From Blastomussa wellsi (lineage: Eukaryota > Cnidaria > Anthozoa > Scleractinia > Plerogyridae), in contig OX393568.1 of NCBI GenBank assembly GCA_947652115.1, positions 9,011,887-9,075,886 of the forward strand: DNA of 64,000 bases, given 5' to 3'. The translations under genes and the position numbers were made by a program. This document shows positions 3,243 through 23,136 of this stretch, piece after piece. The notes beneath the pieces were generated by a model that worked only from the letters and a program-made list of their open reading frames with translations, was not told the origin of the DNA and ran no database searches. Each line of letters starts with the position of its first letter. The first letter of the stretch is position 1.

Positions 3243-3591
3243 TTTCGTAGTGTTGCTTTAATAAGTCCTCGTAACAGGTTTGCCAGTGGATTGCTTCTTC
3301 CTCCAAGTCTTTGATTTCTTTCTTCCAATTTCGTCTTGCTTCGTTGCACTCGTTGCACAAAGTGACCGTTTTGCCTGGTGGTGTGTTGACTCTTATATCT
3401 TGGCAGGTCGGGCACTTCCTTTCGTCGTTGTATTTGTATGCCAAATGCTCTTGCAAGAGTTTGTCGTGGGTTTTATGGCAATGGTCGATCGTTTCTTGCA
3501 ATTCCACGTTCCTGTCATTGGCTTCTTTCAATAATTTGACGAGCATGGTGTTGGTTTCGTGTAACGCGCTTATCCTTTTTTGCATCGACAT
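3199..3591 (-). CDS. Coiled-coil protein with a four-cysteine zinc knuckle
   Basis: This 130-residue protein starts with a long helical, Leu/Glu/Lys-rich segment (about residues 5-50, likely coiled coil). It continues with CPTCQD ... CNEC (about residues 60-82), a Cx2C-Cx2C zinc-binding pattern, and then a second helical stretch. The role is unknown; a small scaffold or assembly protein is possible. A second ATG six bases downstream could also be the start. Confidence 0.68.
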   Translation of the reverse strand: MSMQKRISALHETNTMLVKLLKEANDRNVELQETIDHCHKTHDKLLQEHLAYKYNDERKCPTCQDIRVNTPPGKTVTLCNECNEARRNWKKEIKDLEEEAIHWQTCYEDLLKQHYENDGRSNNGACQRDG

Positions 3592-6396: not shown

Positions 6397-6966
6397 TCAC
6401 AACAAATCTCTTACACCGCTTCCGCGGGAGCTGATACCATTTTGTTTAAAGGGTCTTTTGCAGACTTCGTGCCATTTCAGTTGTTTGACAATCAAAGCTT
6501 TTAACATTTGACCCACTTTGTGATCGTTGGCGACGTAATCGTGTTTCGAAAATTGATTCACAAATTCTTGCATAGTTTTTCCCCTGGCTTTGGCTTTCAA
6601 ATACATCAAGGCGTAATCGCCACAACTTTGACTGAATGGGGACTGTAAACTTTGTTTATTGTTTATCACGTATTTCCAATGTTTGTCTAACCATGCTTGT
6701 ATAGGTTGTGTGGTGCGATAACTGTTCAATGGTAAAGCGTAACTGTCCATCACTTCGCACACGTTTCCTTTGGTCCATATACTTATCCAATGTCGACCTG
6801 GTTTGTCCTGCGGATCTGTGTTGACGATGTAACCTTGTGAAATGTCTTTGCGTGGTTTCTTGGGTAAGAGATCGCAAGCCACTGTCCCGTGAAAGTAGGG
6901 TTTGAGGATGGGATCGGTTTCGGCCAAATGATCCAATTGAACGTTGTTCAAAGTGACCCTTTCCAT
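6397..6966 (-). CDS. Adenain-like cysteine protease (maturation protease)
   Basis: This 189-residue protein carries the Ulp1/adenain triad in order: GRHWISIW (His, about residue 58), VMDSYALP (Asp, about 72) and SQSCGDYALMYLK (Cys, about 114), with a Gln just before the Cys. Such proteases mature capsid and core precursors in adenoviruses and Polinton-like elements. Its ATG overlaps the capsid stop by one base (TAATG). The small GG-motif proteins of this block are its likely substrates. Confidence 0.87.
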   Translation of the reverse strand: MERVTLNNVQLDHLAETDPILKPYFHGTVACDLLPKKPRKDISQGYIVNTDPQDKPGRHWISIWTKGNVCEVMDSYALPLNSYRTTQPIQAWLDKHWKYVINNKQSLQSPFSQSCGDYALMYLKAKARGKTMQEFVNQFSKHDYVANDHKVGQMLKALIVKQLKWHEVCKRPFKQNGISSRGSGVRDLL

Positions 6967-8351
6967 TAACGTTGATACACGTTGTACAATACTGCTTTGT
7001 TGTCGTCGATCTCCAACAGTTCCTCAAATTCTCCGTAGAGAATGATGGTGATGTTGTCTGCGAGTGGGGCTCCGAAATTCAGGATGACTTGTACATCACC
7101 GCTCTGCTTGGGATTCAACACTGGACTGTCCAAACATCCGTTGGCCGTGTTATCAAATACAAACAACGTGCAGTTTTTGCCCTGTCCCCATTCTGCTTCC
7201 CTCACCATATTTCCTTTCTGTTTGCATAGACATCCTGTGGCTTGTAGAAATCTGAAGTAACCTCTCAAATCGCGGGTGCTGTTGTTGTGAATCAATTCCA
7301 AGGTCTCGTAGGGATATTCTTCTCCTCTCACCAATTGACGGATGTTACTCAATGCAAACTTTTGAAAACTGAATGGATTATTTGCGTAGGTGCCGGTGAA
7401 TGCAGTTGACAATACCATTCCCACGATGAGTCGGTTGGGTACTCTGTTCTGGAACAGATTGATGCATTCATAGTGTTGCTGACCCGCTTGCACGTTGAAG
7501 GTCCTTATTTCTCCTCGTACTGTGGGGTAAGTCACGGGTCTCCTGGTCTGTCTTTGTTTTTGTTCCAATTCCAGGTACACGGATGGATTGAGTCTCATTT
7601 GACAAAGGTACAGTCTCACTTTGACGTCATCGCTGTTGAGTCGTACATTCACACCTAGTCCGTTCATGAACACCGTGGGAGAATTGAAATACAACTGGAT
7701 CTGCATTTGCACTCCCGGCACCAATGCTTTGCTCATGTGAAATATTTCGATGTTGGGTGTGAAGCGTAACACGTGTGTTTTACCTCCTGCATATTTGGTC
7801 AGTTCGGCTTTCATGGCTAACACTGCTTCTTTCTGGGTGGCAGACAGAGCTGTGTAATTGGCATGGGGTGTAGCGCTGTCCAGGTTGTTGGCCGTCAGGG
7901 TAGCAGCACAATCAATGGCATTGTACCACCCTTGGGGTTTCAAGATCGTTTCTCCGTCATCTCTGTCATAATTCAACAAGGTTTCCAAGTAAGCCTTGTA
8001 ATGATACGTGTCGGTCTGAGGACTGATCAAAGTTGAATTGAGTTTCATGTTGATCTGCTTGAACAGAGTATGGGCAAAGTTATTGGCTGGGAACATGTTT
8101 TCGGCAGCCACCAAATTATCTCCATTGACTTTCTTTAGACTCAATTCCAATTCGAAGTAACTGCGACTCAAATCGATGTAATCCTCTTGAGGGTCTATCT
8201 GAAATTCGACGGGGTTGATGCCTGTGGTGAACGTCTGAACAGGAACGTAACGTTTACTGGAGATGCTGACATCTGTAGGAGGTACTCGGAAGAGATTCAA
8301 TGCAGGATTTTTCACTCCGGCCGAACCGGTCAATGGGACGAGATCAGTCAT
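6966..8351 (-). CDS. Major capsid protein (double jelly-roll)
   Basis: A 461-residue protein matching Polinton/adintovirus hexon-type capsid proteins in length, position and features. These include an early segment FQIDPQEDYIDLSRSYFELE, a TYHYKAYLETLLNYDRDD segment near residue 115, and beta-rich hydrophobic stretches with a final LYGEFEELLEID. In this family trimers of a double jelly-roll build the icosahedral shell. It lies between a basic core-like gene and the protease with start/stop overlaps on both sides. Confidence 0.8.
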   Translation of the reverse strand: MTDLVPLTGSAGVKNPALNLFRVPPTDVSISSKRYVPVQTFTTGINPVEFQIDPQEDYIDLSRSYFELELSLKKVNGDNLVAAENMFPANNFAHTLFKQINMKLNSTLISPQTDTYHYKAYLETLLNYDRDDGETILKPQGWYNAIDCAATLTANNLDSATPHANYTALSATQKEAVLAMKAELTKYAGGKTHVLRFTPNIEIFHMSKALVPGVQMQIQLYFNSPTVFMNGLGVNVRLNSDDVKVRLYLCQMRLNPSVYLELEQKQRQTRRPVTYPTVRGEIRTFNVQAGQQHYECINLFQNRVPNRLIVGMVLSTAFTGTYANNPFSFQKFALSNIRQLVRGEEYPYETLELIHNNSTRDLRGYFRFLQATGCLCKQKGNMVREAEWGQGKNCTLFVFDNTANGCLDSPVLNPKQSGDVQVILNFGAPLADNITIILYGEFEELLEIDDNKAVLYNVYQR

Positions 8352-8590
8352 CTTCTTCTTCTTCGGCGTCTACGCGTTGGAATGAACGTGCCACCGCGTT
8401 GTTGCCTTTTTATAAGCCTGGACTTTGTAAACTGTTCCACCATGTCTTTCCACGGTAAGCGAGTTCGAGTGGGAAAGATGGTACCACCGCGTTGGCCAAA
8501 CATAATCATCATGTCCAATGGTGAAGGAATGATGGTACCACCGCGTTGAGGTCTTATCCTTTTCACGCGTCTCGAGTAGATTGGATTCAT
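8348..8590 (-). CDS. Arginine-rich protein with three RGGT(I/F)(I/F)P repeats
   Basis: This 80-residue protein contains QRGGTIIPS, QRGGTIFPT and QRGGTFIPT spaced by about 18 and 30 residues, and ends in a run of eight Arg. The repeats are also visible as a repeated 20-base DNA block near 8388, 8480 and 8532. Strong basicity suggests a DNA-condensing core protein. The GG motifs may be cleavage sites for the adenain-like protease. Both ends overlap neighbours as ATGA. Confidence 0.6.
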   Translation of the reverse strand: MNPIYSRRVKRIRPQRGGTIIPSPLDMMIMFGQRGGTIFPTRTRLPWKDMVEQFTKSRLIKRQQRGGTFIPTRRRRRRRR

Positions 8591-9902: not shown

Positions 9903-10917
9903 ACTTGAAATGTAATGTCACGATCGTACTTCCTTCTTCGAAGTGTACTTCTCTTCCGTCTTCCTCTTTCACGTCGATTTCGATAATGTCAATGACTTCG
10001 TCTCGCACCGGTATATATTGCACGTTTTGCATCTCGTATCCACTTTGAGACAACGTGTAGGGAATGTCTCTCAACAAATTAGTGATCTGTACTCCCACCG
10101 TGCTGCTCTGGACGGCAGTCGAGTGAACGAAGAGAGGTCTTTGCTGATGACCGAATGCCCGTTCGTAACTTTCGTCCAAGTACGAAAACACCCAATTGCA
10201 AAAACAACTCAATTGAAGTGCGTCGTTGTCGATTTTGTAAAATTCGTCGTTTCCTTCTATGATGTCAGTAGCGCCTGGCACCTTGTCTGTAGGAAATTCT
10301 TTGCGTAAATTCTCTCCCAACTCGTAAACGGGATCACCATCACCATCTGTTTCTTCTTTGACCCATCCCATGTCTTTGGCCAATTGATATCCCACGAACA
10401 CTTTTGGGTGATTGTTGCCTCCGAAATACGTGTCGATATTATCCAATACAAATTGGTCTTTGTCAGCATACATTTGCGTGTAAAACCTCTTGAATTTCAC
10501 GATGTCGTTACCATCATCGTCTTGGCCTTCTGTCTCATCTTGCCCCAATTGAGCATCAGCAATGTCAATGTTTTCTAGATTCCAATAGTACAATCTCTTG
10601 ATGGCTGTCATTAATTGCGTGCCGTTGGTGATGTTGAACTTGTTCAATACATCTTCAGTGATGAGGAGTCGTTGTTCTGTATAAACTTCATCGTCAACAT
10701 CTTCCAACAAGTCCCATTCGAACCGAAACAGAAAGGGATCCTTGATGAGGACGCGAGGTGGTGCTTTTGGTACGTGAATACTGGTCATACCCACTTTCCA
10801 TCCAGATTCCTTGAAACGCAACGGGTAAGGTAAACGATTCTTGAAGTGATGGGGTTGATTGTCGGGAAATTCCACGCGGTTCGATCGACTGGTGAGTCTC
10901 AGGTAAAATTCCCTCAT
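9892..10917 (-). CDS. Penton-like minor capsid protein, paralog B
   Basis: Starting from the ATG at 10917 (ATGA overlap with the integrase stop), the protein has 341 residues. It shares with paralog A the opening FYLRLTSRSNRVEFPDNQ, the WKVGMTSIHVPK segment, SSTVGVQITNLLRDI and the C-terminal TIVTLHFK. The middle has diverged and is more acidic. Two penton-type genes in tandem suggest gene duplication, perhaps giving vertex and special-vertex or spike-base subunits. The division of labour is inferred. Confidence 0.73.
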   Translation of the reverse strand: MREFYLRLTSRSNRVEFPDNQPHHFKNRLPYPLRFKESGWKVGMTSIHVPKAPPRVLIKDPFLFRFEWDLLEDVDDEVYTEQRLLITEDVLNKFNITNGTQLMTAIKRLYYWNLENIDIADAQLGQDETEGQDDDGNDIVKFKRFYTQMYADKDQFVLDNIDTYFGGNNHPKVFVGYQLAKDMGWVKEETDGDGDPVYELGENLRKEFPTDKVPGATDIIEGNDEFYKIDNDALQLSCFCNWVFSYLDESYERAFGHQQRPLFVHSTAVQSSTVGVQITNLLRDIPYTLSQSGYEMQNVQYIPVRDEVIDIIEIDVKEEDGREVHFEEGSTIVTLHFKYDD

Positions 10918-12050
10918 AGCGATTCCAGAGCTGAACGTTCGATCCAACTGTTATACTTCTCTGGCCATCCTTTCCATTCAACCAACACTTTAGTACCTTT
11001 TCGTTTCAGTATTTTTTCGACTCGAAACAGATCCTCGTCGTCTTGCAGGACTTTTTGCAATTCTTCCTTGTAAAATGTTCCTTTGACAGGCGTTCCGTCG
11101 TATTCGTTGATCTTGTAGGTTGTGACGGGTGGACCTGGTCTGACATCACTCACGACGAAAATTTCTTCGGTCCAGCCTGGTAAATAACTTTTCTTGAACG
11201 TACGGAATTTTTTGTTGAGTCGTACCTTATCACCCACTTTCAACAAAGTACGTCGTTTGGGTTTTTTGCCTTGCAATTTCTTGGCATACAAATTCATCCA
11301 CACTTCGTGTTCGTTCTTCTTGTTGACTTTGTTTGGGGCCATGCCGATACTTCTATGAAATGACGCATTGTATCCCTTCACCAAAGCGGGAAGTGCAGAC
11401 ATGTAATTCAATGTGTTTTTGACGGTAAAATAACGATACATGCGTTCCTTGAAGGTACGATTGAATCGTTCCGCAATACTGGCTTTCGTGTCACCTGCTG
11501 TGGAAAAATGATTGATCTTCTTTCGTTTCATCAATTCAGCAAAGATCTTGTTATAAAATTCCTTTCCATCGTCGGTTTGTAAATTTTGAGGTGTACGTCC
11601 TTTGGCGCGTTTCAGGATTTTTTCAAAAGCTTCCGTCACCGATTTTCCCGTCTTGTTTTTCACGGGTTCTATCCAAGCGTATTTGGACAACGCGTCCAAA
11701 ACGACCAGCAGGTAACGGTTGCCTTTGTTTTGTTTGGCCAAGGTTTGCACTTCCACCAAATCAGCTACCCATTGTTGATCGATATTAAACACCAAGACGG
11801 GAGAAGTAGTGTATCGTCTCCTTCTGGGTTTATGAAGCGTGTATCCCAATTCTCTTTCCAAGAGTTTCTTGACTCTGTTGACAGGTAATTTCTGAGCCTT
11901 GGCAAATCGTTCAATACCTCCCAAACTACCAGGTTCGGTGGGATCGCGGTAATCTTCCAAGATGCTTTGATCCTTGATTTTACCTTTCAAGATGCTTTGA
12001 TCCTTGATTTTACCTTTCAAGATGCTTTGATCCTTCCTTTTACCTTTCAT
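10914..12050 (-). CDS. Retrovirus-like integrase with C-terminal chromodomain
   Basis: From the ATG at 12050 the protein has 378 residues. The catalytic acids are visible in VADLVEVQ (Asp, about 97), LQTDDGKEFY (Asp, about 160) and ASIAERFNRT (Glu, about 194), an rve-family DDE core. The last 40 residues hold VEKILKRKGTKVLVEWKGW, a chromodomain that in related elements reads histone marks and steers insertion. The N-terminus has three tandem copies of a KGK(I/R)KDQSIL unit, an oddity. Polintons use this enzyme to insert with a 6-bp target duplication. Confidence 0.88.
   Translation of the reverse strand: MKGKRKDQSILKGKIKDQSILKGKIKDQSILEDYRDPTEPGSLGGIERFAKAQKLPVNRVKKLLERELGYTLHKPRRRRYTTSPVLVFNIDQQWVADLVEVQTLAKQNKGNRYLLVVLDALSKYAWIEPVKNKTGKSVTEAFEKILKRAKGRTPQNLQTDDGKEFYNKIFAELMKRKKINHFSTAGDTKASIAERFNRTFKERMYRYFTVKNTLNYMSALPALVKGYNASFHRSIGMAPNKVNKKNEHEVWMNLYAKKLQGKKPKRRTLLKVGDKVRLNKKFRTFKKSYLPGWTEEIFVVSDVRPGPPVTTYKINEYDGTPVKGTFYKEELQKVLQDDEDLFRVEKILKRKGTKVLVEWKGWPEKYNSWIERSALESL
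11958..12050 (-). repeat. Tandem 30-base coding repeat in the integrase N-terminus
   Basis: About three copies of a 30-base unit encode a Lys-rich decapeptide. The copies differ at only one or two bases, so the expansion is recent or kept uniform. Confidence 0.7.
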
Positions 12051-12324
12051 TGTCGACGGCTTCACGCAGTGCAAAGAAACTGCGTCTCACGATCGACAGT
12101 CGCATTCTATATATGATGTCGTACCATTCCGTTGCATGTTTCTGTTTTTTCAACCACATCACAAAGGGTACCAATCGAAATGCATTGCATGCCACGTCCA
12201 CCTCGTCAAACAGGTCTAAGGGATTACATTCATTTTCGTCGGGTAACTCGAAGATTTCGTCGACTCTCGACCACACTTTATCACACAAATCACACATGGT
12301 CGTCCACCTGATCTTTTCTTCCAT
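12040..12324 (-). CDS. Small protein of unknown function, first gene of leftward block
   Basis: From the ATG at 12324 it has 94 residues: an MCDLCDKVW segment with two Cys, an acidic middle (ELPDENECNPLDLFDEVD), then a basic aromatic C-terminal helix. No family is recognised. A TATA box lies about 35 bases upstream and the stop overlaps the integrase ATG by 11 bases, so it heads the transcript. Confidence 0.6.
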   Translation of the reverse strand: MEEKIRWTTMCDLCDKVWSRVDEIFELPDENECNPLDLFDEVDVACNAFRLVPFVMWLKKQKHATEWYDIIYRMRLSIVRRSFFALREAVDNER

Positions 12325-12563: not shown

Positions 12564-13553
12564 ATGGAGCAAGCAGAGATGCCGGAGATGAAGAAGGAAG
12601 AAGAAGAACTGACTGACCAAATACAGTTTTTGCAAAGTGAACAAGGTAACTATATTCATTATCAACCCGGTGACGCATCGCCGACTAAAAAAACAAAAAA
12701 GTCAAACCGCGGCAAAAAGAAGAAGAAGAAAGGAGATGAATCTCCTACACGTTACATGTTGCCTAAAGATTTCCCACCTGCTTCCAACAAGAAGAAGAAG
12801 AAGAAGAAAGAAGTTGTGGAAGTGATGGAAGAGGGTGAAATACCGTCGTACGATGAAGCCATTGATTTTTTCAACAAGTTCTTCCCACAAGCAGAAGTGA
12901 ATTGTCCGATTCACAACAATGTTCCACTTCAAGAAAAAACAGCAAGCAATGGATGGAAGTACCTGGTTTGCGGTGTGGGAAGAGATGATCGTAAAGATCA
13001 TTGTTTTGTCTTGGTGGACAAAAACGACGCCAAAACGTATATCGACATCGTTCGAAATATGAACACTGTGATGACTTACTACTCAAACAACCTGGATAAA
13101 TTGTTGTGTTACTGCGACGAACCGACCATTCTCAGCATCTCCTATTCGCCGAAGAATCCAGATCGCCCTTACTTCCGCTGCAGACGAAACATGTGCAAAT
13201 TCTTTCAATGGGCTGATTTGCTACCGAGAGGAAAAGTATTGGCTTGGATGGAAGGAGGAAAACGTCATCATGGTAACACCCATTGGTCCAGAGATGAACA
13301 AGGTTACCCATTGAGAGGACAAGATTCTCCCTGGTATCACAAACCCACCTACACCGATGTCAATTCCATTCCTTTTGACCAGTCGTTGTGGCTCGAGTGT
13401 CAAAAAGTAAACATCGCGTTCTTGGAACAGAATCAAGAGGTGATAAGTCCTCCAGAAATAAAGGGATGTCACTATACCGAAGAGAATGAACCTGCGTTAA
13501 AGAATCAGATTTACATCAGACGTCTGATGAAGAAGCATGGACTAACAGGATGA
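12564..13553 (+). CDS. GRF zinc-finger protein with Lys-rich N-terminus
   Basis: From the ATG at 12564 it has 329 residues. A charged N-terminus with several Lys runs (nuclear-localisation-like) comes first. A first Cys/His cluster (CPIHNNVPL ... KYLVCG ... DHCF) follows. Then comes a clear GRF-type finger, LLCYCDEPTIL ... YFRCRRNMCKFFQWAD, with the CxC...C...CxFFxWAD pattern near residues 180-218. GRF fingers bind single-stranded DNA in repair and topoisomerase proteins. A role in viral DNA replication or repair is likely. The stop overlaps the next ATG as ATGA. Confidence 0.78.
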   Translation: MEQAEMPEMKKEEEELTDQIQFLQSEQGNYIHYQPGDASPTKKTKKSNRGKKKKKKGDESPTRYMLPKDFPPASNKKKKKKKEVVEVMEEGEIPSYDEAIDFFNKFFPQAEVNCPIHNNVPLQEKTASNGWKYLVCGVGRDDRKDHCFVLVDKNDAKTYIDIVRNMNTVMTYYSNNLDKLLCYCDEPTILSISYSPKNPDRPYFRCRRNMCKFFQWADLLPRGKVLAWMEGGKRHHGNTHWSRDEQGYPLRGQDSPWYHKPTYTDVNSIPFDQSLWLECQKVNIAFLEQNQEVISPPEIKGCHYTEENEPALKNQIYIRRLMKKHGLTG

Positions 13554-14071
13554 AAGAGAAAGTGTGTATGATATTGGACTTGGAGGGATTTTTCGTCAAC
13601 CAGAAATTTCAAGTGCGGGAACTGGGATATTACGCTTGGACAGGAGATCACGGACGATACGCATTTTACGCAAAAGTACCTTGGTACAATTTATCCGCAG
13701 AAGACAAAAGAACTGTTGCCTTTCAAAAATATAACATTCACGGACTGACGTACGATCCAATAAAACAAGAAAGAGGATACGAGTCTCACCAGTTGGAAGA
13801 GATATTATTGAATTTGTATAAGAACAACAAATGCAATGAAAGATATGTAATAGCCTACAAAGGAGGGCATGTGGAAAAAGATTTGTTGAATAGACTTAAC
13901 ATTCAAAGTTTAAACCTTGAAGTGTATAATTGTCCTAAATACGAAATACTAAAATCGAGTGTTGTCGAGCCTTTGCCCGATTGCGGATTTCATTTCAATT
14001 GTTGTAACACTCATTGCAGCATGGTCGAATGTCATGCTTTTTGGTTATGGATGAACACTTACGTAGAATAA
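13550..14071 (+). CDS. DEDD-type exonuclease-like protein
   Basis: A 173-residue protein with MILDLEGFFVN (a D-x-E exonuclease motif I) at the start, YVIAYKGGHVEKDLLNRL (motif II-like) near residue 105, and a Cys/His-rich end NCCNTHCSMVECHAFWLWM. This is a family often seen in Polinton-like elements and host genomes of cnidarians and insects. Nuclease action on RNA or DNA ends is inferred and not all metal ligands can be assigned. AATAAA (14068-14073) overlaps the stop codon, so the 3' UTR is minimal. Confidence 0.62.
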   Translation: MKEKVCMILDLEGFFVNQKFQVRELGYYAWTGDHGRYAFYAKVPWYNLSAEDKRTVAFQKYNIHGLTYDPIKQERGYESHQLEEILLNLYKNNKCNERYVIAYKGGHVEKDLLNRLNIQSLNLEVYNCPKYEILKSSVVEPLPDCGFHFNCCNTHCSMVECHAFWLWMNTYVE

Positions 14072-15189: not shown

Positions 15190-15274
15190 GTCACGTGATA
15201 GCAATTGTATGGGGATGGGGGGGTATCCCCCCTTTTCATTGACCAATCAGGAACCAACTCATGACCTATATAAG
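15190..15274 (+). promoter_or_regulatory. Promoter of F-box cassette array and polymerase, copy of the one at 525-607
   Basis: GTCACGTG near 15190, a G7-TAT-C6 palindrome at 15217-15232, ACCAATCAGGAACCA (CCAAT) near 15242, and CTATATAAG at 15266-15274. The stretch from the palindrome to the TATA box differs from the copy at 551-607 at only a few positions. It is the only strong promoter upstream of the polymerase gene on this strand. Confidence 0.75.
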
Positions 15275-15318
15275 TAACTCACTTGCAGCGTTTGCTTCAT
15301 TCTCAAGTTTGACACAAG

Positions 15319-15987
15319 ATGGCAAGCAACGATGACAGAGAGAAGTTATGGAGGAAGAAAGGGCCGATGCAATGGGAGTTTCTTGGAGAAGAAAAAGAAG
15401 CAGAAGAAGAGGTAAGAAGTCATTGGGATGTATTGCCAGAAGAAATCAAAGAAAAGATACAATGGGCAAGTGTAGAAATGCATGTACGGGAACGATTGAA
15501 CACTCGTTGCGAGATTAAGAAGCTAGAAGTAAATGAAGATAATCATTATCTCCATCTACCTGTGACTTTGGCCTTTCAACACTACACATGCATGAAAACT
15601 GTCATGTTAAACAAGAGCAAAACAGAATTTGGAACTTGGGAATTAATACATTTATTCTTGGATCCTTGCGAAAGTTGCGATTTATTCCTCTCTCGTTACG
15701 AAGAAAAAACAAATGAAACGGGACAAATTGAAAATCAAGGAACATTGTATGGTGATTCGGATCGAATTCCTTTCATGAAAACGGATGAACGTTGGTTTCA
15801 TCAAGAATGCATAGATCACACTGACAAACATGGATATTGTTACCTGTGTGCAACACATTTCGATCCGGAAAAGGCATGCGATGACTTTCGTCACTTCTTC
15901 TTTTATCCCAGAGATGAAAAGTACGATGAAATCAAAAAGTTACCGTTTTGCGATGAAGACAAATTGGTTGTTCATTTTCTTGTTTGA
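15319..15987 (+). CDS. Array 2 leader exon with F-box-like/zinc cassette 1 (read-through form)
   Basis: The leader is 15319-15411: 31 codons, charged, ending in an acidic run. It ends at a strong donor GAG/GTAAGAAGT after 15411 in phase 0. Without splicing it continues into cassette 1: SHWDVLPEEIKEKIQW (an F-box-like core LPxEixxxI) near residue 35, then DPCESCDLF and ERWFHQECID (Cx2C ... HxxxC). The reading gives 222 residues. F-box proteins link substrates to SCF ubiquitin ligases. The similarity is short, so the F-box label is a hypothesis; the repeated motif itself is certain. Confidence 0.72.
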   Translation: MASNDDREKLWRKKGPMQWEFLGEEKEAEEEVRSHWDVLPEEIKEKIQWASVEMHVRERLNTRCEIKKLEVNEDNHYLHLPVTLAFQHYTCMKTVMLNKSKTEFGTWELIHLFLDPCESCDLFLSRYEEKTNETGQIENQGTLYGDSDRIPFMKTDERWFHQECIDHTDKHGYCYLCATHFDPEKACDDFRHFFFYPRDEKYDEIKKLPFCDEDKLVVHFLV

Positions 15988-15996
15988 AATTCGCAG

Positions 15997-16476
15997 ATAA
16001 TCAGTCATTGGGATATTCTTCCCGTCGAAATACAACAAAAGATACAATGGAAAGCGGATCGTTTGATGATTGAGACAAAACGCTATCGCAATTTTAAATA
16101 TTGGTTCAACTTGAAAGTTGTATTGGATCAATGTTGTCATTGTGGATTCTTCATAGACATGAGACATCGCATCGATGAAGAAGGAAATTTCAAGAGTAAC
16201 AGATTCGTATTTCGAAAAAAAAGTTACAACGACTTTGGTCGTTACAAATATTTAAATCACATTTGGGACATGGATCGTTTACCTTCTCGCATGATTGAAC
16301 AGAGTGGGGAAAAAATAACATTGTGGAAACAATACATTCGTACCGTGACCGTGGGAGAACGCGTAACATTTTACGACGAAGGATTATGGGTACACCCAGA
16401 TTGCATTATACCCTATCACATTTCTATTCGCAGGGAATGGGAGTCAACCCATGGGATCGATTACCAGACGAACTGA
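15997..16476 (+). CDS. F-box-like/zinc cassette 2
   Basis: The acceptor TTGTTTGAAATTCGCAG ends at 15996 and the frame is open in phase 0 for 159 codons. It begins with the shared core SHWDILPVEIQQKIQW and continues with CCHCGFFIDMRHRIDEEGNF (Cx2C) and a late WVHPDC (HxxC). The first in-frame ATG comes only 22 codons in, so translation as an independent gene would lose the core motif. The last codons overlap the start of cassette 3 in another frame. Confidence 0.6.
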   Translation: MISHWDILPVEIQQKIQWKADRLMIETKRYRNFKYWFNLKVVLDQCCHCGFFIDMRHRIDEEGNFKSNRFVFRKKSYNDFGRYKYLNHIWDMDRLPSRMIEQSGEKITLWKQYIRTVTVGERVTFYDEGLWVHPDCIIPYHISIRREWESTHGIDYQTN

Positions 16477-16796
16477 AACGAATCATACAGCGACAAGCTG
16501 ATCAAATCATGATCAACATCATTCACCATTTACCTTATTGGCCTGATTTGTTCAATTCCTTGGACCCTTGTATTTATTGTCATAGTTTCATATACTATCA
16601 TTCAATGGAAGATCCTCCATCGTATCTATGGCTAAAATCGCGTTTACCTTGGCACTATTACAAAACGAAGGGAAGATATGTATCTGGATGTATTTACGTT
16701 GACAAAATTGAAAACAAAAACAGGATAAAACCAGATGGATGGATACATTGCTATTGCATCGGAAATCACTTTCTATGCTCAAACTTTTCACAGTGA
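16434..16796 (+). CDS. F-box-like/zinc cassette 3
   Basis: The acceptor TTTCTATTCGCAG ends at 16433; phase 0, 120 codons. The core is NPWDRLPDELKRIIQR. The zinc pattern is DPCIYCHSF and GWIHCYC. It is nearly identical to cassette 4 over its whole length, showing recent tandem duplication with a 381-base period. Confidence 0.6.
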   Translation, partial: GMGVNPWDRLPDELKRIIQRQADQIMINIIHHLPYWPDLFNSLDPCIYCHSFIYYHSMEDPPSYLWLKSRLPWHYYKTKGRYVSGCIYVDKIENKNRIKPDGWIHCYCIGNHFLCSNFSQ

Positions 16797-16814
16797 TCAC
16801 ATTTCTGTTCGCAG

Positions 16815-17177
16815 GAAGCTGGAGTCAACCCATGGGATCGATTACCAGACGAACTGAAACGAATCATACAACGAAAAGCCGATCAAATCATGATCAATAT
16901 CATTCACCATTTACCTTATTGGCCTGATTTGTTCAATTCCTTGGACCCTTGTATTTATTGTCATAGTTTCATATACTATCATTCAATGGAAGATCCTCCA
17001 TCGTATCTATGGCTAAAATCGCGTTTACCTTGGCACTATTACAAAACGAAGGGAAGATATGTATCTGGATGTATTTACGTTGACAAAATTGAAAACAAAA
17101 ACAGGATAAAACCAGATGGATGGATACATTGCTATTGCATCGGAAATCACTTTCTATGCTCAAACTTTTCACAGTGA
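16815..17177 (+). CDS. F-box-like/zinc cassette 4
   Basis: The acceptor TTTCTGTTCGCAG ends at 16814; phase 0, 120 codons. It is a 381-base duplicate of cassette 3 that differs mainly in the first 25 codons, while the rest looks identical by eye. Its first 95 or so bases are in turn identical to cassette 5. Confidence 0.6.
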   Translation, partial: EAGVNPWDRLPDELKRIIQRKADQIMINIIHHLPYWPDLFNSLDPCIYCHSFIYYHSMEDPPSYLWLKSRLPWHYYKTKGRYVSGCIYVDKIENKNRIKPDGWIHCYCIGNHFLCSNFSQ

Positions 17178-17195
17178 TCACATTTCTGTTCGCAG

Positions 17196-17612
17196 GAAGC
17201 TGGAGTCAACCCATGGGATCGATTACCAGACGAACTGAAACGAATCATACAACGAAAAGCCGATCAAATCATGATCAATATCATTCACCATTCGCCTTAT
17301 TGGAATGCTTTGGATTCGATCTTGGACCCTTGTATTCATTGTAACACTTTCATTCACACTTTAGGCTCGAGTTACTGGCCACCGTCTCTATGGCACAAAT
17401 GCACTTTACCTTGCTACTATTTCGCAAATGATGGTGACGTAAATGAATTTTACATTGACAAATTCAAACTAGTGAACTTACAACGCACAAGAGAAGTACT
17501 GAAAAATCATTCTGAATCAAAATGGATTCATTTGTATTGCATCGGAAATTACCTTTTATCCTTTCCAATACAAAAAAGACCAAGATTAAAAAGAATGTTT
17601 TCTATCTTTTAA
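17196..17612 (+). CDS. F-box-like/zinc cassette 5
   Basis: The acceptor TTCTGTTCGCAG ends at 17195; phase 0, 138 codons. The first 32 codons match cassette 4 exactly or nearly so. After that the sequence diverges (DPCIHCNTF, WIHLYC keep the zinc pattern). The sharp change from identity to divergence points to recombination or gene conversion between cassettes. Confidence 0.6.
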   Translation, partial: EAGVNPWDRLPDELKRIIQRKADQIMINIIHHSPYWNALDSILDPCIHCNTFIHTLGSSYWPPSLWHKCTLPCYYFANDGDVNEFYIDKFKLVNLQRTREVLKNHSESKWIHLYCIGNYLLSFPIQKRPRLKRMFSIF

Positions 17613-17615
17613 CAG

Positions 17616-18014
17616 ATGAGTCTATGGGATTTTCTACCGGAAGAGATAAAACTAAAGATTTTGTGGATAGCTGACAAAATGGAACGCAAATTGGAACATC
17701 GCAGATTCAGGCACTATTTAAGAGACTATACAAAACCATGTGCCACGTGCGGTTTGTTCTTGGACATGAATCAACGAATAAACAAAAGGGGAGACATCTA
17801 CGGTTCCCCGCGCAATATCCTTGATTTCGAACGCATGCCTAACGTAAAGAATGAATTCGGTAAAGAAGATTGGCATCACCACGAATGCGTAAAAGATCGT
17901 TTTCATCCCATGGTGCAACATTACTTCGAACGTTATAAACATTATCATCGCGAACAAAAGAAGCAAAACAAAAGAAGAAGGAAACTCATATTCACCATGG
18001 CTTTAGCTGATTAA
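17616..18014 (+). CDS. F-box-like/zinc cassette 6
   Basis: The acceptor TTTTCTATCTTTTAACAG ends at 17615; phase 0, 132 codons, and here the first codon is ATG. The core is LWDFLPEEIKLKILW. The zinc pattern is KPCATCGLFLDM and DWHHHEC. The C-terminus is Lys/Arg-rich. Confidence 0.6.
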   Translation: MSLWDFLPEEIKLKILWIADKMERKLEHRRFRHYLRDYTKPCATCGLFLDMNQRINKRGDIYGSPRNILDFERMPNVKNEFGKEDWHHHECVKDRFHPMVQHYFERYKHYHREQKKQNKRRRKLIFTMALAD

Positions 18015-18037
18015 CTTTTTTTTCGGTCTTTTCACAG

Positions 18038-18391
18038 AGTCATTGGAATTTTCTGCCAGAAGAAATGAAACGAAAAATTCAATGGCTTTCGGACAAATCG
18101 TATGTGGAAGACAAACTCAAATACAACCATAGATTTTGGTACAAGTTTCACTTACGATTATCTCCTTGTCATCTTTGCGGTCACTTCGTGAACACGAAAG
18201 ACAGAATAGAACCGTCAGGGAACTTCAAACAAGAGAATGCATACCCTGTCATGTGTAGGATAGCTCATCAGACATTCAATCATCCGTATATAGATCAATG
18301 GGAATATTGGCATGGATATACGGATGAGGGTTTCCTTTTCTTATCAATAATGAGACCTCCCTTTGAACACACGTGTCTTGATTGCAGATAA
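18038..18391 (+). CDS. F-box-like/zinc cassette 7
   Basis: The acceptor TTTTTTTTCGGTCTTTTCACAG ends at 18037; phase 0, 117 codons. It begins directly with SHWNFLPEEMKRKIQW; then SPCHLCGHF and a late HTCLDC. The stop (18389-18391) lies inside the first codons of cassette 8. Confidence 0.6.
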   Translation, partial: SHWNFLPEEMKRKIQWLSDKSYVEDKLKYNHRFWYKFHLRLSPCHLCGHFVNTKDRIEPSGNFKQENAYPVMCRIAHQTFNHPYIDQWEYWHGYTDEGFLFLSIMRPPFEHTCLDCR

Positions 18392-18732
18392 AGAGTCACT
18401 GGGATGCATTACCGGAAGAATTGAAAAGATACATTCAATGGAAGGCAGACATCATGCATGTCAAAGACAAACTCAATCACAACAATCAGATTTGGAAATC
18501 ATTTCATTTTTGGTTTATGGGTCGATGTATATATTGCGATTGTTACCTGAACATGAAAAACAAAATAGACGCAGAAGGCAATTACAAGTGCGAATCAGAA
18601 AAAATATGGAAAAAAAGACAATGGGTAGACAACAAAGAATGGGAAGCAGTATTCAGTGTATATGACGATCCTCCCACAACAAAACATTACTTTCAACATT
18701 GCGATTGCGTATTGTTTTCTCCGCACAGATGA
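18388..18732 (+). CDS. F-box-like/zinc cassette 8
   Basis: The acceptor GTCTTGATTGCAG ends at 18387; phase 0, 114 codons. The core is SHWDALPEELKRYIQW; then GRCIYCDCYLNM and FQHCDC. Its first 40 codons closely resemble cassette 9. Confidence 0.6.
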   Translation: MKSHWDALPEELKRYIQWKADIMHVKDKLNHNNQIWKSFHFWFMGRCIYCDCYLNMKNKIDAEGNYKCESEKIWKKRQWVDNKEWEAVFSVYDDPPTTKHYFQHCDCVLFSPHR

Positions 18733-19028
18733 AGAGTCACTGGGATGCATTACCAGAAGAATTAAAAAGATACATTCAATGGCAGGCAGATCTCATGCAC
18801 GTAAAAGAGAAAAAGAAAATGTGGTCAAAAACATTGAACACTTTCAGTTATTGTCGACGTTGCAGTTTTTTTCTGGAAATGAGACACAGGCTTTGGAAAA
18901 ATGGAGACATACGAGGAAACCCCACATCAATAGACAACACATGGCGAATACCATCCATGTGTCATTTAAATCCCAGTCAATCAGATTGGCACCACAATTA
19001 TTGTTGTCTTGACATGATTGCAGATTGA
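18729..19028 (+). CDS. F-box-like/zinc cassette 9
   Basis: The acceptor TTGTTTTCTCCGCACAG ends at 18728; phase 0, 99 codons. The core is SHWDALPEELKRYIQW; then SYCRRCSFFLEM and DWHHNYCC. The stop codon (19026-19028) overlaps the first bases of the polymerase exon. Confidence 0.6.
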   Translation: MKSHWDALPEELKRYIQWQADLMHVKEKKKMWSKTLNTFSYCRRCSFFLEMRHRLWKNGDIRGNPTSIDNTWRIPSMCHLNPSQSDWHHNYCCLDMIAD

Positions 19029-22000
19029 TGACGACACCATGATCGAGGCGGCCAGTGAATGGGAACGCGGATTTGATTTCATTTTGACTCCACACGTGGA
19101 CAGACGATTGAGACGATTTGATTTACATCACAGAAGTTACACGGCGCGATTGGCACAGCGCGGTGGTGCATTGGTCAACTTGGACAGAGCCGTGTTGCCG
19201 GGACAAATCGAGGAAGCCTTGCAACGCAGCATCAACGAACAAATATTAGAAGACTCGGAAGTACGACCCGACGATCATTTGCTGATCAACATAAACTCGA
19301 ACAGACTGAGAAACGCTTATCATTCAAGACGAGTGCGAGTGCGTGATTGGAGAAACAATGCATTGATCGCTCGCACCGTTTTGGAAGAATTAAGCAGACT
19401 GTTGAACTCCAACGAAAATTTCAGAATGGATGATACGTTTAACTTGAACATTTCTCACATAAAAGCCACCGGGACGGGAAGCGGACGACGAAAAAAACTG
19501 GGAACGGACCACATTGAGAAACTCTTAAACGACAAAAAGTCAGTGATCAAAATCAAAAACACGGACGAACTGTGTTGTGCTAGAGCTTTGGTCACCATCA
19601 AAGCTTACCGCGATCTAGGCAGTAGACACAGCACTTACAAGAGTTTACACATGGGCAAATCCATACAAGAACGACAAGCCAAAGAATTACACGCCTCTGC
19701 CAAAGTACCCGAAGGACCCTGCGGCTTGACTGAAATTCAACAATTTCAGACTTACCTGAAAGAGTACCAGATCGTGGTGGTTTCCGTGGATCACGGTTAC
19801 CAAATAATTTTCAAAGGGCCTGACCAACCCGAAGATAAACTCCTTGTCTTGATCAAAGTGGGAGAACATTACCATGCGTGCAACTCGCTGAAAGGATTCT
19901 TTGGCAAAGCCCATTTCTGTCTAGCGTGCGAAAAATCCTTCGAGCGTGACACATGGAGTCATCACAGATGTAAAGGAAAACGATGTCATGCCTGTTATCA
20001 ATTGAATTGCCCAGATTTCACCACAATAGTCGACAAAGGTACCAAAGCCATGGTTCCTTGCAACGATTGTGACCGCTTGTTCTTCGGAGACGCGTGTTTT
20101 GCTCTGCATAAGAAACAACAAGAAGAAAGCGGGAAAAAAGTGGAAAAAAACACCAAGAACAGTGTTTGTCACATGCATAAGAAATGTAAGAATTGTAGCA
20201 AGACACTGACCCGACACGAAATCGAAATGGGTAAACACGTGTGCGGCTACAGCCAATGCCCTTCCTGCAAACGATACTTGAACTTGTATCAACACACATG
20301 TTTCATTCAGAACCCAAACGAAGAAAAAAGAAAAAAGAGAAAGAGAAAAGCGGACGACACTCAGCCAGAAGAACCTCCCATTTTTGTGACTTGGGATGCC
20401 GAAGCCATGCAAGAAAGAGGAATTCACGTACCCAATTTGATTTGCGCCATGACTTCGAACAGTAACTTGCAATACAAGTTCGAGGGTTCGACATGTGTGA
20501 CAGACTTTCTCGACTGGTTACGAGAAATAGCCATCGACAATAAAGTCATTGCCATTGCTCACAATTTCAAAGGGTACGATTCCTACTTCATTTTGAACGA
20601 ACTATACCGTCAAGGCATCTGTCCGACACAATTGGTAAACGGAAGCAAGATTTTGTCGATGAAAGTTCACGACATTGAATTCAAGGACTCGATGTGTTTT
20701 CTTCAGATGCCGCTTTCTGCCTTCCCAAAATCATTTGGACTGACGGAACAGAAAAAAGGGTTCTTCCCTCATTTCTTCAATATTCCAGACAACCAATCGT
20801 ACGTGGGTCCCATTCCGGCACGCGATTATTACGACCCGGGAGGTATGAAACCAGAAAGAAAAGCAGAATTTGACGAATGGCACAAAAAAATGAAAGAGGA
20901 GAATTACCTGTTTGATTTCCAGGCGGAACTGTTGGCCTATTGCCAATCGGATGTGAAATTGTTACACGACGGATGTAAGGTGTTTCGACAACAATTCAAA
21001 CAAGTGGCCGGATTTGATCCCATGGAAAAATGTTTAACCATTGCCTCGGCTTGCAACCTGTACTATCGCACAACATGCATGCCCAAGAACTGTTTGGCTT
21101 CGGAACCAGTGCGGGGTTGGCACGGAAAAGGAAAACCTCACTCCCAGGCTTCCATCGAATGGTTACATTACATGAACCGCAATGCTACATCGACAGACCG
21201 TGTGACGCATGCCAGAAACGGTGGAGAACACGTGATCCGTGTGGGTAACAGACGACTGCACGTAGACGGGTACGCGGCGTCCACCAATACCGTGTACGAA
21301 TTCTACGGTTGCTTCTATCACGGTTGCCCCACTTGTTTTCCAAACCGATACCAGAAACACACCAAACTGGACGAACGTACCATGCACGACGTGCACGAAA
21401 CCACGCAACGTCGAGCCGATCAGATCCGACACGCAGGTTACAATCTCATGGAAACATGGGAATGTCAATGGAACAATCTCAAAAAACGAGACACGGACAT
21501 TCAAACCTACCTGAAATCTTCAAACTTGACGGAACGACTAGAACCCAGAGATGCCTTTTTCGGGGGCAGAACCAATGCGGTCAAACTTCATCACAAGACG
21601 CAAGAGGGTGAAAAGATCCATTACGTGGATTTCACGTCACTCTATCCCTACGTCAACAAAAACTGCGTTTACCCCATAGGACATCCCATCATCGTGCTAG
21701 AACCAGGGCACACAGATCTATCCGAGTTTTTCGGGCTTGCCAAATGCACTGTGTCACCACCCTACGGGTTATACCACGCCGTCTTACCCTACCGCAGCGG
21801 CGGAAAACTGACCTTCCCGTTATGCCGCACCTGCGTAGAAACGGAACAATCCAAACCCTTAACAGAACGCACCGCAAGTTGCAGCCACACGCTCAAAGAA
21901 AGGCAACTAACCGGTACTTGGTGCACACCTGAATTGGAAGAAGCAGTGCGTCAAGGCTACGTGATCCAACACGTGCACGAAGTTTGGCATTTTCAAAACA

Positions 22001-22986
22001 CGTCCGACACGTTGTTCAAATCGTACGTGAACACTTTCCTGAAAATCAAGCAAGAAGCCAGCGGGTGGCCAAAACGGGTAGGGAACGACACCGACAAACG
22101 CGTGAAATACATCACGGACTATGAGAAAAAGGAAGGAATCAAATTAGAACCCGACAAGATAGAAGAAAATCCGGGAAAACGATCTCTAGCCAAAATGATG
22201 CTAAACTCCTTCTGGGGAAAGTACGGGCAACAAAGCAACAAGACTCAAGTTCAAACGTACACCAGTCCGGCCCTATTCCACAAGTTGTTGGAAGACGACA
22301 GCAAGGAAATAAACGACATCCGCATCGTCAATGAGGAAATGATCGAAGTCGTACACAAGTATCAAAGCGAGTGTGACCCCATTCAAGTGAACATAAACAT
22401 TTTCGTGGCTTGCTTCACCACTTGCTGGGCAAGACTACGATTGTATCAAGAAGGTCTCTCAAAACTGAATCCTCTACAGACTTTGTACTTTGACACTGAC
22501 TCCATCATTTATTCCCACAAAGGAAATGAACCCAGTTTACCATTGGGTGATTTCCTGGGAGAATACACAGACGAATTGAAAGACCCGGATGATCACATTG
22601 TAGAATTCGCTGCTGCAGGACCCAAGAATTACGGGTACCGTACCATGAAGGGAAAAGTAGAATGCAAGGTGCGTGGCTTCTCGCTGAACACACGCGGACA
22701 AGAACAGTTAAACTTTGAAATCCTAAAAGAAAATGTCATGGATGAAGTGACACAACCTTTGGAGGAAAAACAACGGCAGATTCCCGTCTTCAATCCATTC
22801 AAGATCACAAGAGACAATAAAACCAAACATTTAGAAACAATGACCGAAACAAAACGTTACCAAATCGTTTTTGACAAACGAGTAGTGGATCCCATCACGC
22901 TTCACTCTTACCCATATGGCTATCACGAAGAATTCGAATGGGATGAACAAGATGAACTCAATTTGCAAAGTTTATTGCTCTTTTAA
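19024..22986 (+). CDS. Protein-primed DNA polymerase B
   Basis: A 1,320-codon frame from an acceptor (TTGCAG ending 19023) in the phase of the cassette array. The first ATG is at 19039 (1,315 residues). A Cys/His-rich region spans about residues 293-420 (several Cx2C pairs). Exonuclease motifs: TWDAEAM (~450), AHNFKGYDSYF (~507), YCQSDVKLL (~634). Polymerase motifs: DFTSLYPYV (~865), KMMLNSFWGKYG (~1052), YFDTDSI (~1151). The order is that of Polinton/adenovirus-type protein-primed polymerases that copy linear DNA from a terminal protein. No TATA box lies just upstream, so expression probably uses the promoter at 15190-15274 with a 3.6 kb intron. Confidence 0.92.
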   Translation: MDDDTMIEAASEWERGFDFILTPHVDRRLRRFDLHHRSYTARLAQRGGALVNLDRAVLPGQIEEALQRSINEQILEDSEVRPDDHLLININSNRLRNAYHSRRVRVRDWRNNALIARTVLEELSRLLNSNENFRMDDTFNLNISHIKATGTGSGRRKKLGTDHIEKLLNDKKSVIKIKNTDELCCARALVTIKAYRDLGSRHSTYKSLHMGKSIQERQAKELHASAKVPEGPCGLTEIQQFQTYLKEYQIVVVSVDHGYQIIFKGPDQPEDKLLVLIKVGEHYHACNSLKGFFGKAHFCLACEKSFERDTWSHHRCKGKRCHACYQLNCPDFTTIVDKGTKAMVPCNDCDRLFFGDACFALHKKQQEESGKKVEKNTKNSVCHMHKKCKNCSKTLTRHEIEMGKHVCGYSQCPSCKRYLNLYQHTCFIQNPNEEKRKKRKRKADDTQPEEPPIFVTWDAEAMQERGIHVPNLICAMTSNSNLQYKFEGSTCVTDFLDWLREIAIDNKVIAIAHNFKGYDSYFILNELYRQGICPTQLVNGSKILSMKVHDIEFKDSMCFLQMPLSAFPKSFGLTEQKKGFFPHFFNIPDNQSYVGPIPARDYYDPGGMKPERKAEFDEWHKKMKEENYLFDFQAELLAYCQSDVKLLHDGCKVFRQQFKQVAGFDPMEKCLTIASACNLYYRTTCMPKNCLASEPVRGWHGKGKPHSQASIEWLHYMNRNATSTDRVTHARNGGEHVIRVGNRRLHVDGYAASTNTVYEFYGCFYHGCPTCFPNRYQKHTKLDERTMHDVHETTQRRADQIRHAGYNLMETWECQWNNLKKRDTDIQTYLKSSNLTERLEPRDAFFGGRTNAVKLHHKTQEGEKIHYVDFTSLYPYVNKNCVYPIGHPIIVLEPGHTDLSEFFGLAKCTVSPPYGLYHAVLPYRSGGKLTFPLCRTCVETEQSKPLTERTASCSHTLKERQLTGTWCTPELEEAVRQGYVIQHVHEVWHFQNTSDTLFKSYVNTFLKIKQEASGWPKRVGNDTDKRVKYITDYEKKEGIKLEPDKIEENPGKRSLAKMMLNSFWGKYGQQSNKTQVQTYTSPALFHKLLEDDSKEINDIRIVNEEMIEVVHKYQSECDPIQVNINIFVACFTTCWARLRLYQEGLSKLNPLQTLYFDTDSIIYSHKGNEPSLPLGDFLGEYTDELKDPDDHIVEFAAAGPKNYGYRTMKGKVECKVRGFSLNTRGQEQLNFEILKENVMDEVTQPLEEKQRQIPVFNPFKITRDNKTKHLETMTETKRYQIVFDKRVVDPITLHSYPYGYHEEFEWDEQDELNLQSLLLF

Positions 22987-23038: not shown

Positions 23039-23136
23039 TGAACTCGTTACCAGGTTTTTTGCGTGACATGTGTGAACTCGTTACCAAGTTTTTTGCGTGA
23101 CATGTATTGCGTGACATGTATTGTGTGACCATTAAA
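23039..23136 (+). repeat. Direct repeats after the polymerase and variant poly(A) signal
   Basis: GAACTCGTTACC(A)(G/A)GTTTTTTGCGTGACATGT occurs twice (from about 23040 and 23073), followed by two shorter TTG(C/T)GTGACATGTA-like copies. ATTAAA at 23131-23136 may be the polymerase poly(A) signal. Confidence 0.6.

What the first reader, a model, noticed from the sequence alone, without database searches (positions are those of the whole stretch)
15319..19028. Nine interchangeable F-box-like/zinc cassettes behind one leader exon
A 31-codon leader ends at a strong donor (after 15411). Eight further units each start right after a pyrimidine-CAG acceptor (ends 15996, 16433, 16814, 17195, 17615, 18037, 18387, 18728), all in phase 0, and each opens with an SHWDxLPEE(I/L)KxxIQW core followed by Cx2C and H/C pairs. 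Most have no ATG before the core. This is seen in the sequence. The reading as an alternative-3'-exon repertoire giving one leader many C-terminal target-binding modules is inference, and I know of no description of such an array in Polinton-like elements.
Basis: partly seen in the sequence, partly recalled or inferred. Interest (0 to 1): 0.95.

Follow-up and report, generated by a model that had tools for sequence, protein, structure and literature searches.

The report
One viral start, nine swappable exons
In a virus-like mobile element repeated many times in a probably coral genome, one promoter-like site and one short protein start sit in front of nine related gene cassettes and the element's DNA polymerase gene, and RNA splicing is predicted to join that one start to a different cassette each time, which would give one gene many versions of a viral protein.

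Summary
A 31-codon leader (15319-15411) ends at the array's only strong donor; eight further units open in phase 0 right after pyrimidine-rich CAG acceptors. Unit 1 continues in frame from the leader, so unspliced RNA would encode it. The element is Polinton/adintovirus-like and multi-copy. Over 26 array-bearing loci, 174 of 176 unit or PolB starts follow YAG; 37 of 37 leader ends found genome-wide keep GT; unit number varies from 5 to 9; 81 of 150 unit copies have no in-frame ATG before the core. A divergent family (about 40% identity) keeps leader, donor phase and 9 of 10 acceptors. Best reading: one promoter, one coding leader exon, mutually exclusive acceptors, nested mRNAs ending after PolB; closest to adenovirus E4. 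There is no RNA evidence, and no retrocopied leader-cassette junction was found. Eight of nine units pair Cx2C with Hx2C, so zinc binding is likely; F-box membership is not shown. The units' dN/dS is about 1.7-4.6 times PolB's.

The parts
15267..15273 (+). TATA box (TATATAA) about 52 bp upstream of the leader ATG, predicted promoter; the window has no further TATATAA on this strand up to the end of PolB
   Evidence: a TATAWA lies roughly 48-66 bp upstream of the leader ATG in all 20 copies that have both leader and PolB
15319..15411 (+). Shared coding leader exon (predicted), 31 codons, acidic C-terminal end
   Evidence: in 20 of the 26 array-bearing loci; divergent version in L041-L043
15412..15417 (+). 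Splice donor GTAAGA, predicted
   Evidence: 20 of 20 copies; GT follows 37 of 37 leader ends found genome-wide, GTAAGA 36 of 37; only site at 8/9 consensus or better in the window's array
15412..15987 (+). Unit 1, continuous with the leader if the donor is not used
   Evidence: Open frame 15313-15987
15997..16476 (+). Unit 2; acceptor ends 15996
   Evidence: CAG in 22 of 22 copies; sequence just upstream of the AG varies by indels
16434..16796 (+). Unit 3; acceptor ends 16433, inside the end of unit 2
   Evidence: CAG in 20 of 20
16815..17177 (+). Unit 4, recent tandem duplicate of unit 3 (381-bp period); acceptor ends 16814
   Evidence: (97% identity), 67: CAG in 2 of 2
17196..17612 (+). Unit 5; acceptor ends 17195
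   Evidence: CAG in 17 of 17; no ATG before core in the open frame in 15 of 17
17616..18014 (+). Unit 6; acceptor ends 17615; ATG directly after it
   Evidence: CAG in 21 of 21; ATG after the acceptor in 21 of 21
18038..18391 (+). Unit 7; acceptor ends 18037
   Evidence: CAG in 23 of 23; no ATG before core in 22 of 23
18388..18732 (+). Unit 8; acceptor ends 18387, overlapping the end of unit 7
   Evidence: YAG in 19 of 19; no ATG before core in 19 of 19
18729..19028 (+). Unit 9; acceptor ends 18728; first codon ATG or ATA in different copies
   Evidence: YAG in 24 of 26 (exceptions: L022 and a fragment in L025); ATG after acceptor in 13 of 26
19004..19023 (+). Predicted splice acceptor of PolB, in phase 0 with the leader donor
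   Evidence: CAG in 26 of 26 copies
19024..22986 (+). PolB-type DNA polymerase, last predicted exon of the unit; own ATG at 19039
   Evidence: PF03175, E 8e-40
23131..23136 (+). Candidate poly(A) signal (ATTAAA) after PolB, possible shared 3' end; an AATAAA follows at 23807
10914..12086 (-). Polinton-type integrase with chromodomain (places the array in a Polinton)
   Evidence: PF00665 E 1.6e-13, PF00385 E 7.8e-5 (just under its cut-off)

Best explanation
This stretch of a Polinton carries one TATA box, one 31-codon coding leader ending in one conserved donor-like GT, nine tandem paralogous cassettes and the DNA polymerase gene, and the leader is predicted to be spliced to one cassette (or to the polymerase) at a time. 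If the donor is skipped, the frame runs straight into cassette 1; if it is used, the leader would join in phase 0 to the CAG acceptor of any of cassettes 2-9 or of PolB, and each cassette's own stop codon would end the protein. The mRNAs would be nested and share a 3' end after PolB. The donor lies at the homologous codon boundary of unit 1 (GTA AGA AGT CAT TGG against ATA AAG AGT CAC TGG in unit 8), so swaps would be seamless, and a cassette duplicated with its acceptor could work at once as a new alternative exon. The cassettes likely make small zinc-binding proteins with an F-box-like N-terminal helix, in my guess adaptors against host factors. Shown: anatomy, conservation, phases, copy-number variation, selection figures. 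Inferred: use of the splice sites, nested 3' end, protein function.
For: Donor kept in 20 of 20 copies; GT after 37 of 37 leader ends found genome-wide by a pattern that does not ask for GT but does ask for an exact leader end and TGGRA 6-18 bases on. Only strong donor in the window's array. YAG at 174 of 176 unit/PolB starts (7 fragments lacking their 5' end were dropped, BLAST pieces under 60 nt not used, 6 loci without units left out), although bases just upstream differ by indels before unit 2. Phase-0 pyrimidine-rich YAG before the core in 8 of 8 units against 3 of 61 background Trp codons. No ATG before the core in the open frame in 81 of 150 unit copies: 19 of 19 U8, 22 of 23 U7, 15 of 17 U5, 12 of 22 U2, 12 of 26 U9, 1 of 2 U4, none of U3 and U6. 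Frame offset U1 to U2 is 0 in 9, 1 in 10 and 2 in 1 copies and also varies for U6-U7 and U7-U8, against read-through. Divergent family, 36-42% identity: leader, GT at the same phase (GTAACT, GTAAAT, GTAACT), CAG at 9 of 10 unit starts found. In the array-less 64% subfamily PolB lies directly behind a 5' sequence that matches the one before the L041 leader (29 of 34 bases, 0 of 500 shuffles); its motif occurs only at these places in the 8 sequences checked. In 12 of 12 PolB relatives chosen for a GFDF motif the protein starts upstream of the window's PolB ATG, and the window codons between acceptor and ATG align with their acidic motif. dN/dS in the same eight copies: 0.22 PolB, 0.37-1.02 units.
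Against: No RNA data. No leader-cassette junction copied back into the genome at zero mismatches; the search for a leader-PolB junction did not complete. No homologue of the cassettes among the 172 and 149 word-sharing candidates drawn from 5.8 billion proteins or in IMG/VR, so conservation is shown in one genome only. Unit 6 (21 of 21 copies) and unit 3 (17 of 20) have an ATG after the acceptor and could start alone. Most neighbour pairs other than U1-U2, U6-U7 and U7-U8 keep one main frame offset, and U9-PolB is the same in 25 of 25. 22 of 166 units have premature stops; the divergent family is decayed, one of its 10 unit starts has CAA, and L042 lacks the TATATAA box. The window leader's own 5' sequence does not match the array-less one beyond chance (70 of 500 shuffles reach the score), and L043's match is weak (5 of 500). 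Some listed PolB models (P0002, P0005, P0007, P0008) start downstream of the window's PolB ATG. PolB could also be reached by termination-reinitiation: a stop/start overlap at unit 9/PolB is fixed in 26 copies. U7 shows dN/dS near 1.
Confidence: 0.8

Rival explanations
1. The acceptors are spliced-leader trans-splice sites: the array is a polycistronic RNA cut into single mRNAs by a host spliced leader carrying its own AUG, and the 31-codon leader plus unit 1 is just the first gene.
For: Every unit after the first has an acceptor, and 81 of 150 unit copies lack an ATG before the core; phase 0 at all units would fit an AUG-bearing leader.
Against: It does not explain the coding leader's donor at the same phase, kept in 37 of 37, 20 of 20 and in the divergent family. 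The named PolB relatives in the list are from stony corals, and anthozoans are not known for spliced leaders (recalled).
Confidence: 0.07
2. Each unit is an independent small gene with its own promoter and start; the acceptors are coincidence or relics.
For: Unit 6 has an ATG right after the acceptor in 21 of 21 copies, unit 3 in 17 of 20, unit 9 in 13 of 26.
Against: No ATG before the core in most copies of units 5, 7 and 8; no TATATAA after 15267 in the window's array while some other genes of the element have one, though TATAWA words do occur inside the array; ATG and ATA interchange at unit 9; 174 of 176 YAG kept.
Confidence: 0.05
3. Only PolB is made by splicing from the leader; the cassettes between are a decaying, largely unexpressed paralogue array inside the intron.
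For: dN/dS of units is high (0.37-1.02 against 0.22 for PolB) and 22 of 166 units carry premature stops.
Against: 144 of 166 units are open; the first 22 codons of U2, U8 and U9 are at 0.07-0.21, although those of U1 are at 0.96; W, LP, E, I, CxxC stay invariant among units mostly 21-39% identical; the acceptors are kept.
Confidence: 0.07
4. PolB alone is translated by termination-reinitiation after unit 9, not from its own splice form.
For: Stop/start overlap TGATG, then a short frame whose stop overlaps PolB's ATG, present in 26 of 26 copies; the element has another stop/start overlap at the ORF pair meeting at 13550-13553.
Against: The PolB acceptor CAG is kept in 26 of 26, and codons upstream of the PolB ATG align with the N-terminal motif of the 12 relatives compared. 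It leaves the cassettes unexplained.
Confidence: 0.2

Closest known systems
Adenovirus E4 transcription unit
   Same: A common 5' leader exon joined by alternative splicing to different 3' splice sites (PMC7851563, passage seen); [quoted passage not shown]
   Different: Here the leader is coding and would give the start codon and 31 residues to every product, and the acceptor-led exons are tandem paralogues of varying number, followed by the DNA polymerase
Adenovirus E2B (terminal protein and polymerase)
   Same: A viral DNA polymerase belongs to a shared transcription region (passage names pTP and Ad-pol as E2B); that a small shared exon supplies the start codon is recalled, not seen in a call
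   Different: No cassette repertoire between leader and polymerase (recalled)
Drosophila lola / mod(mdg4) type genes (recalled)
   Same: Common 5' exons joined to many alternative zinc-finger 3' exons
   Different: Host gene with a large common BTB part; here a 31-codon leader in a mobile viral element and no sign of a poly(A) signal per exon in the window
Poxvirus ankyrin/PRANC F-box proteins
   Same: Duplicated viral gene family; truncated two-helix F-box (PMC9414399, passages); the unit 6 core gives a sub-threshold PRANC match
   Different: No ankyrin match, F-box-like core at the N-terminus, no significant profile match

Membership tests
Polinton / adintovirus | Retrovirus-like integrase with C-terminal chromodomain | tested here: met
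   PF00665 E 1.6e-13; PF00385 E 7.8e-5, just under its cut-off
Polinton / adintovirus | Viral type B DNA polymerase | tested here: met
   PF03175 E 8e-40; the 120 relatives listed of 1326 found are 44-71% identical. Protein priming itself not tested
Polinton / adintovirus | Adenovirus-type protease and packaging ATPase | tested here: inconclusive
   Peptidase_C5 E 7.8e-4 and Pox_A32 E 2.1e-4, both just under the cut-off
Adintovirus in the strict sense (PMC11071296, passage) | OTU-like domain at the N-terminus of PolB; Hexon recognisable by BLASTp | tested here: inconclusive
   Pfam found only DNA_pol_B_2 in PolB and nothing in the 465-aa ORF at 6966-8369; no direct comparison with adintovirus Hexon was made
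Polinton / adintovirus | Terminal inverted repeats | tested here: inconclusive
   One search found none of 60 nt or more at the element's ends in 1-40000; element-like ORFs run to the window's left edge, so an end may lie outside
Viral common-leader alternative splicing (adenovirus E4 type) | Sequence signals for one promoter and one donor facing several acceptors | tested here: met
   Sequence level only, all sites predicted:
Viral common-leader alternative splicing (adenovirus E4 type) | Observed spliced mRNAs | not testable with these tools
   No RNA data; no retrocopied leader-cassette junction found
F-box proteins | Match to the F-box profile | tested here: not met
   no F-box family match for the 9 units at E up to 10 (the program's filters drop most matches above about 0.1)
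F-box proteins (poxvirus PRANC, two-helix) | Match to PRANC or Skp2 F-box; Skp1 binding | tested here: inconclusive
   Unit 6 PRANC E 0.2 (0.066 for the core alone), 1 of 9 units; Skp2 chains E 3.3-3.4, 2 of 17 sub-threshold hits; Skp1 binding not testable
Four-ligand zinc modules | CxxC followed by HxxC | tested here: met
   8 of 9 units, expected 0.12 by shuffling; unit 7 has CxxC...CxxC
Four-ligand zinc modules | Known zinc-finger fold | tested here: inconclusive
   Two models with mean pLDDT 70 and 65; Foldseek best E 1.5, several PHD/RING entries, none significant

The most novel reading that the evidence does not exclude
A mobile DNA virus stores a repertoire of host-targeting proteins as interchangeable exons: one promoter and one coding leader serve up to nine zinc-containing effectors and the viral polymerase, the choice is made by splice acceptor, and the repertoire grows and shrinks by duplicating an exon together with its acceptor. 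This would be an exon accordion in which each duplication is expressed at once, tied to replication because the polymerase is the last exon.
Probability: 0.45. Interest if true: 0.88.

Novelty: new variant of a known kind. Interest (0 to 1): 0.74.

Why it matters
Viral gene families usually grow by duplicating whole genes (recalled). Here a duplicated piece would need only an acceptor, a frame and a stop to become a new product of an existing promoter, so diversification is cheap and each product excludes the others. It would extend adenovirus-style leader splicing to Polintons, proposed relatives of several DNA virus groups, put the polymerase under the same splice choice, and give a fast-changing orphan protein family whose host targets can be sought. 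RNA-seq of the host could test it directly.

Tried and rejected
Read-through or frameshift along the array: not supported, since the frame offset differs among copies for U1-U2, U6-U7 and U7-U8; for the other pairs one offset dominates. A second coding leader upstream (donor-like AAGGTAACT at 12646): by hand on the sequence it is not in phase with the next ORF; rejected. Retrocopied leader-cassette junctions: none among 37 leader ends, exact pattern only. Separate 3' exons with their own poly(A): not supported in the window (one AATAAA, inside a coding frame); other copies have 1-3 AATAAA not examined. CD47 Ig-like Pfam match of unit 8 (E 0.0062, below its cut-off): treated as chance.
Full report
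What was checked. The window is part of a 368 Mb genome of 124 contigs. It holds a Polinton, adintovirus-like: integrase with chromodomain, PolB, and sub-cut-off matches to an adenovirus-type protease and a packaging ATPase. The PolB matches that carry a name in the list come from stony corals (Oculina patagonica, Porites), so the host is probably a coral or close kin; this is inference. The genome has many copies of PolB: 40 matches, some of them pieces of one copy, 76-100% identical plus five at 64%; only the best candidates were scored, so counts are lower bounds.

The array in the window. ORFs and sequence confirm the leader 15319-15411, the donor GAG|GTAAGA and eight units opening in phase 0 behind CAG acceptors. 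Unit 1 is the in-frame continuation of the leader through the donor. PolB also opens in phase 0 behind a CAG acceptor ending at 19023. The units are mostly 21-39% identical in protein, except the recent copies 3-5 (97% and 70% in DNA over 300 nt). W, L, P, E, I, C and C are invariant. Eight of nine have CxxC then HxxC, where shuffling expects 0.12.

Copies. I fetched 31 stretches: 30 upstream of PolB matches that reach the PolB start to within four residues, and one (L039) that lies on the 3' side of a copy. No unit motif was found in six of them, L029-L033 and L039; the first five belong to the 64% subfamily, L031 and L032 being short and partly N. The other 25 plus the window gave 26 loci; 20 have both leader and PolB. 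Unit order is largely kept and the number varies: 5 to 9 units counting fragments, 4 to 9 by the full-length rule. The donor is GTAAGA in 20 of 20. A genome-wide pattern that does not ask for GT found 37 leader ends, all followed by GT, 36 by GTAAGA, and no spliced junction; it covers junctions to cassettes but not to PolB. At unit and PolB starts YAG stands in 174 of 176; seven fragments lacking their 5' end were dropped. The bases just before the AG vary, with insertions and deletions before unit 2, while AG and phase stay.

Why splicing. Many cores lie in frames that have no start codon: no ATG between the previous stop and the core in 81 of 150 unit copies, that is 19 of 19 of unit 8, 22 of 23 of unit 7, 15 of 17 of unit 5, 12 of 22 of unit 2, 12 of 26 of unit 9, 1 of 2 of unit 4 and none of units 3 and 6. 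Unit 6 has an ATG after the acceptor in 21 of 21 and unit 3 in 17 of 20, so those two could start alone. Units 1 and 2 stand in different relative frames in different copies (9, 10 and 1), as do units 6-7 and 7-8; the other pairs keep one main offset. The leader donor is the only strong donor in the window's array; over the 20 copies one other site of that score, AAGGTAAAT, occurs in 6 and another in 1. In the window the array has one AATAAA, in a coding frame, and no TATATAA beyond the one before the leader; other copies have 1-3 AATAAA that I did not place. One promoter serving all, with nested mRNAs ending after PolB, is the simplest prediction.

Deep conservation. Searching the genome with leader plus unit 1 found loci with 36-42% identity over both parts. 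Three were read. Each has the leader motif W-K-GPM (GPM is EPM in L043) with WEW, and a GT at the same phase (GTAACT, GTAAAT, GTAACT). L041 and L043 also keep a TATATAAAG box upstream; L042 does not. Of 10 unit starts that my patterns found, 9 follow CAG; the tenth follows CAA. L043 shows a PolB-side acceptor followed by an acidic stretch IEDDDDDDE; that of L041 runs into a stop. These copies are decayed.

Where the array sits. In the 64% subfamily PolB follows its 5' sequence directly. That sequence matches the one before the L041 leader at 29 of 34 bases (0 of 500 shuffles reach the score); L043 matches weakly (5 of 500) and the window's own leader upstream region not beyond chance (70 of 500). 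The motif TTGGTCTTGAG occurs only before PolB in L029, L030 and L033 and before the leader in L041 and L042, among the eight sequences checked. The reading is that leader and cassettes lie between the PolB promoter and the PolB body, shown through the divergent family. In 12 of 12 relatives chosen for a GFDF motif (11 of the 120 listed proteins and the 64% copy) the PolB protein starts upstream of the position of the window's PolB ATG, and the window's codons between acceptor and ATG (IDDDT) align with their acidic motif, as expected if PolB takes its start from the leader. Other listed models, such as P0002, P0005, P0007 and P0008, start further down. A stop/start overlap at the unit 9/PolB border leaves reinitiation open for PolB.

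Selection. In the same eight copies dN/dS is 0.22 for PolB and 0.37-1.02 for the units, with 6-8 copies per unit. Over all copies the first 22 codons of units 2, 8 and 9 are at 0.07-0.21, those of the others at 0.34-0.96; whole-unit values run from 0.36 to 0.98. 22 of 166 units are broken. So the units are constrained, unit 7 least, but change fast, as host-interaction proteins often do; the last step is inference.

What the proteins are. No homologue was found. Structure models are poor beyond the first 20-30 residues (mean pLDDT 70 and 65), where a short helix and a long helix flank the LP turn. That resembles the two-helix F-box of poxvirus PRANC proteins described in PMC9414399, but the only profile signals are sub-threshold. 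F-box membership is therefore not claimed; 'works like an adaptor with a zinc module' stays a guess, about one in three.

Comparison. [quoted passage not shown] The present unit would work like E4 but differs in its coding leader, its tandem paralogous exons of varying number, and the polymerase as last exon. The listings of my paper searches and the passages read showed no report of this in Polintons. Hence: new variant of a known kind. The missing piece is RNA.

Noticed in passing
window 12564-14071: The GRF zinc-finger protein ORF ends in a TGA (13551-13553) that overlaps the ATG of the next ORF (13550), a stop/start overlap that suggests coupled translation; by eye the second ORF resembles the N-terminus of an Oculina patagonica gene model fused to PolB (P0003).
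   Followed up: partly
window 19026-19042: Unit 9 stop overlaps an out-of-frame ATG, and the resulting 4-codon frame ends in a TGA that overlaps PolB's own ATG; present in the 26 copies compared.
   Followed up: partly
L029, L030, L033: The 64% PolB subfamily shows no array; in L029 the ATPase-side genes lie just upstream of PolB on its own strand, unlike the window, and three PolB copies with equal scores lie close together on contig C12 around 9795340-9811190, with stretches reading N.
   Followed up: no
L033 about 2250-3360: Long low-complexity stretch of GCTGTTTTCTGTTGTT-like repeats between two PolB copies.
   Followed up: no
   Followed up: no
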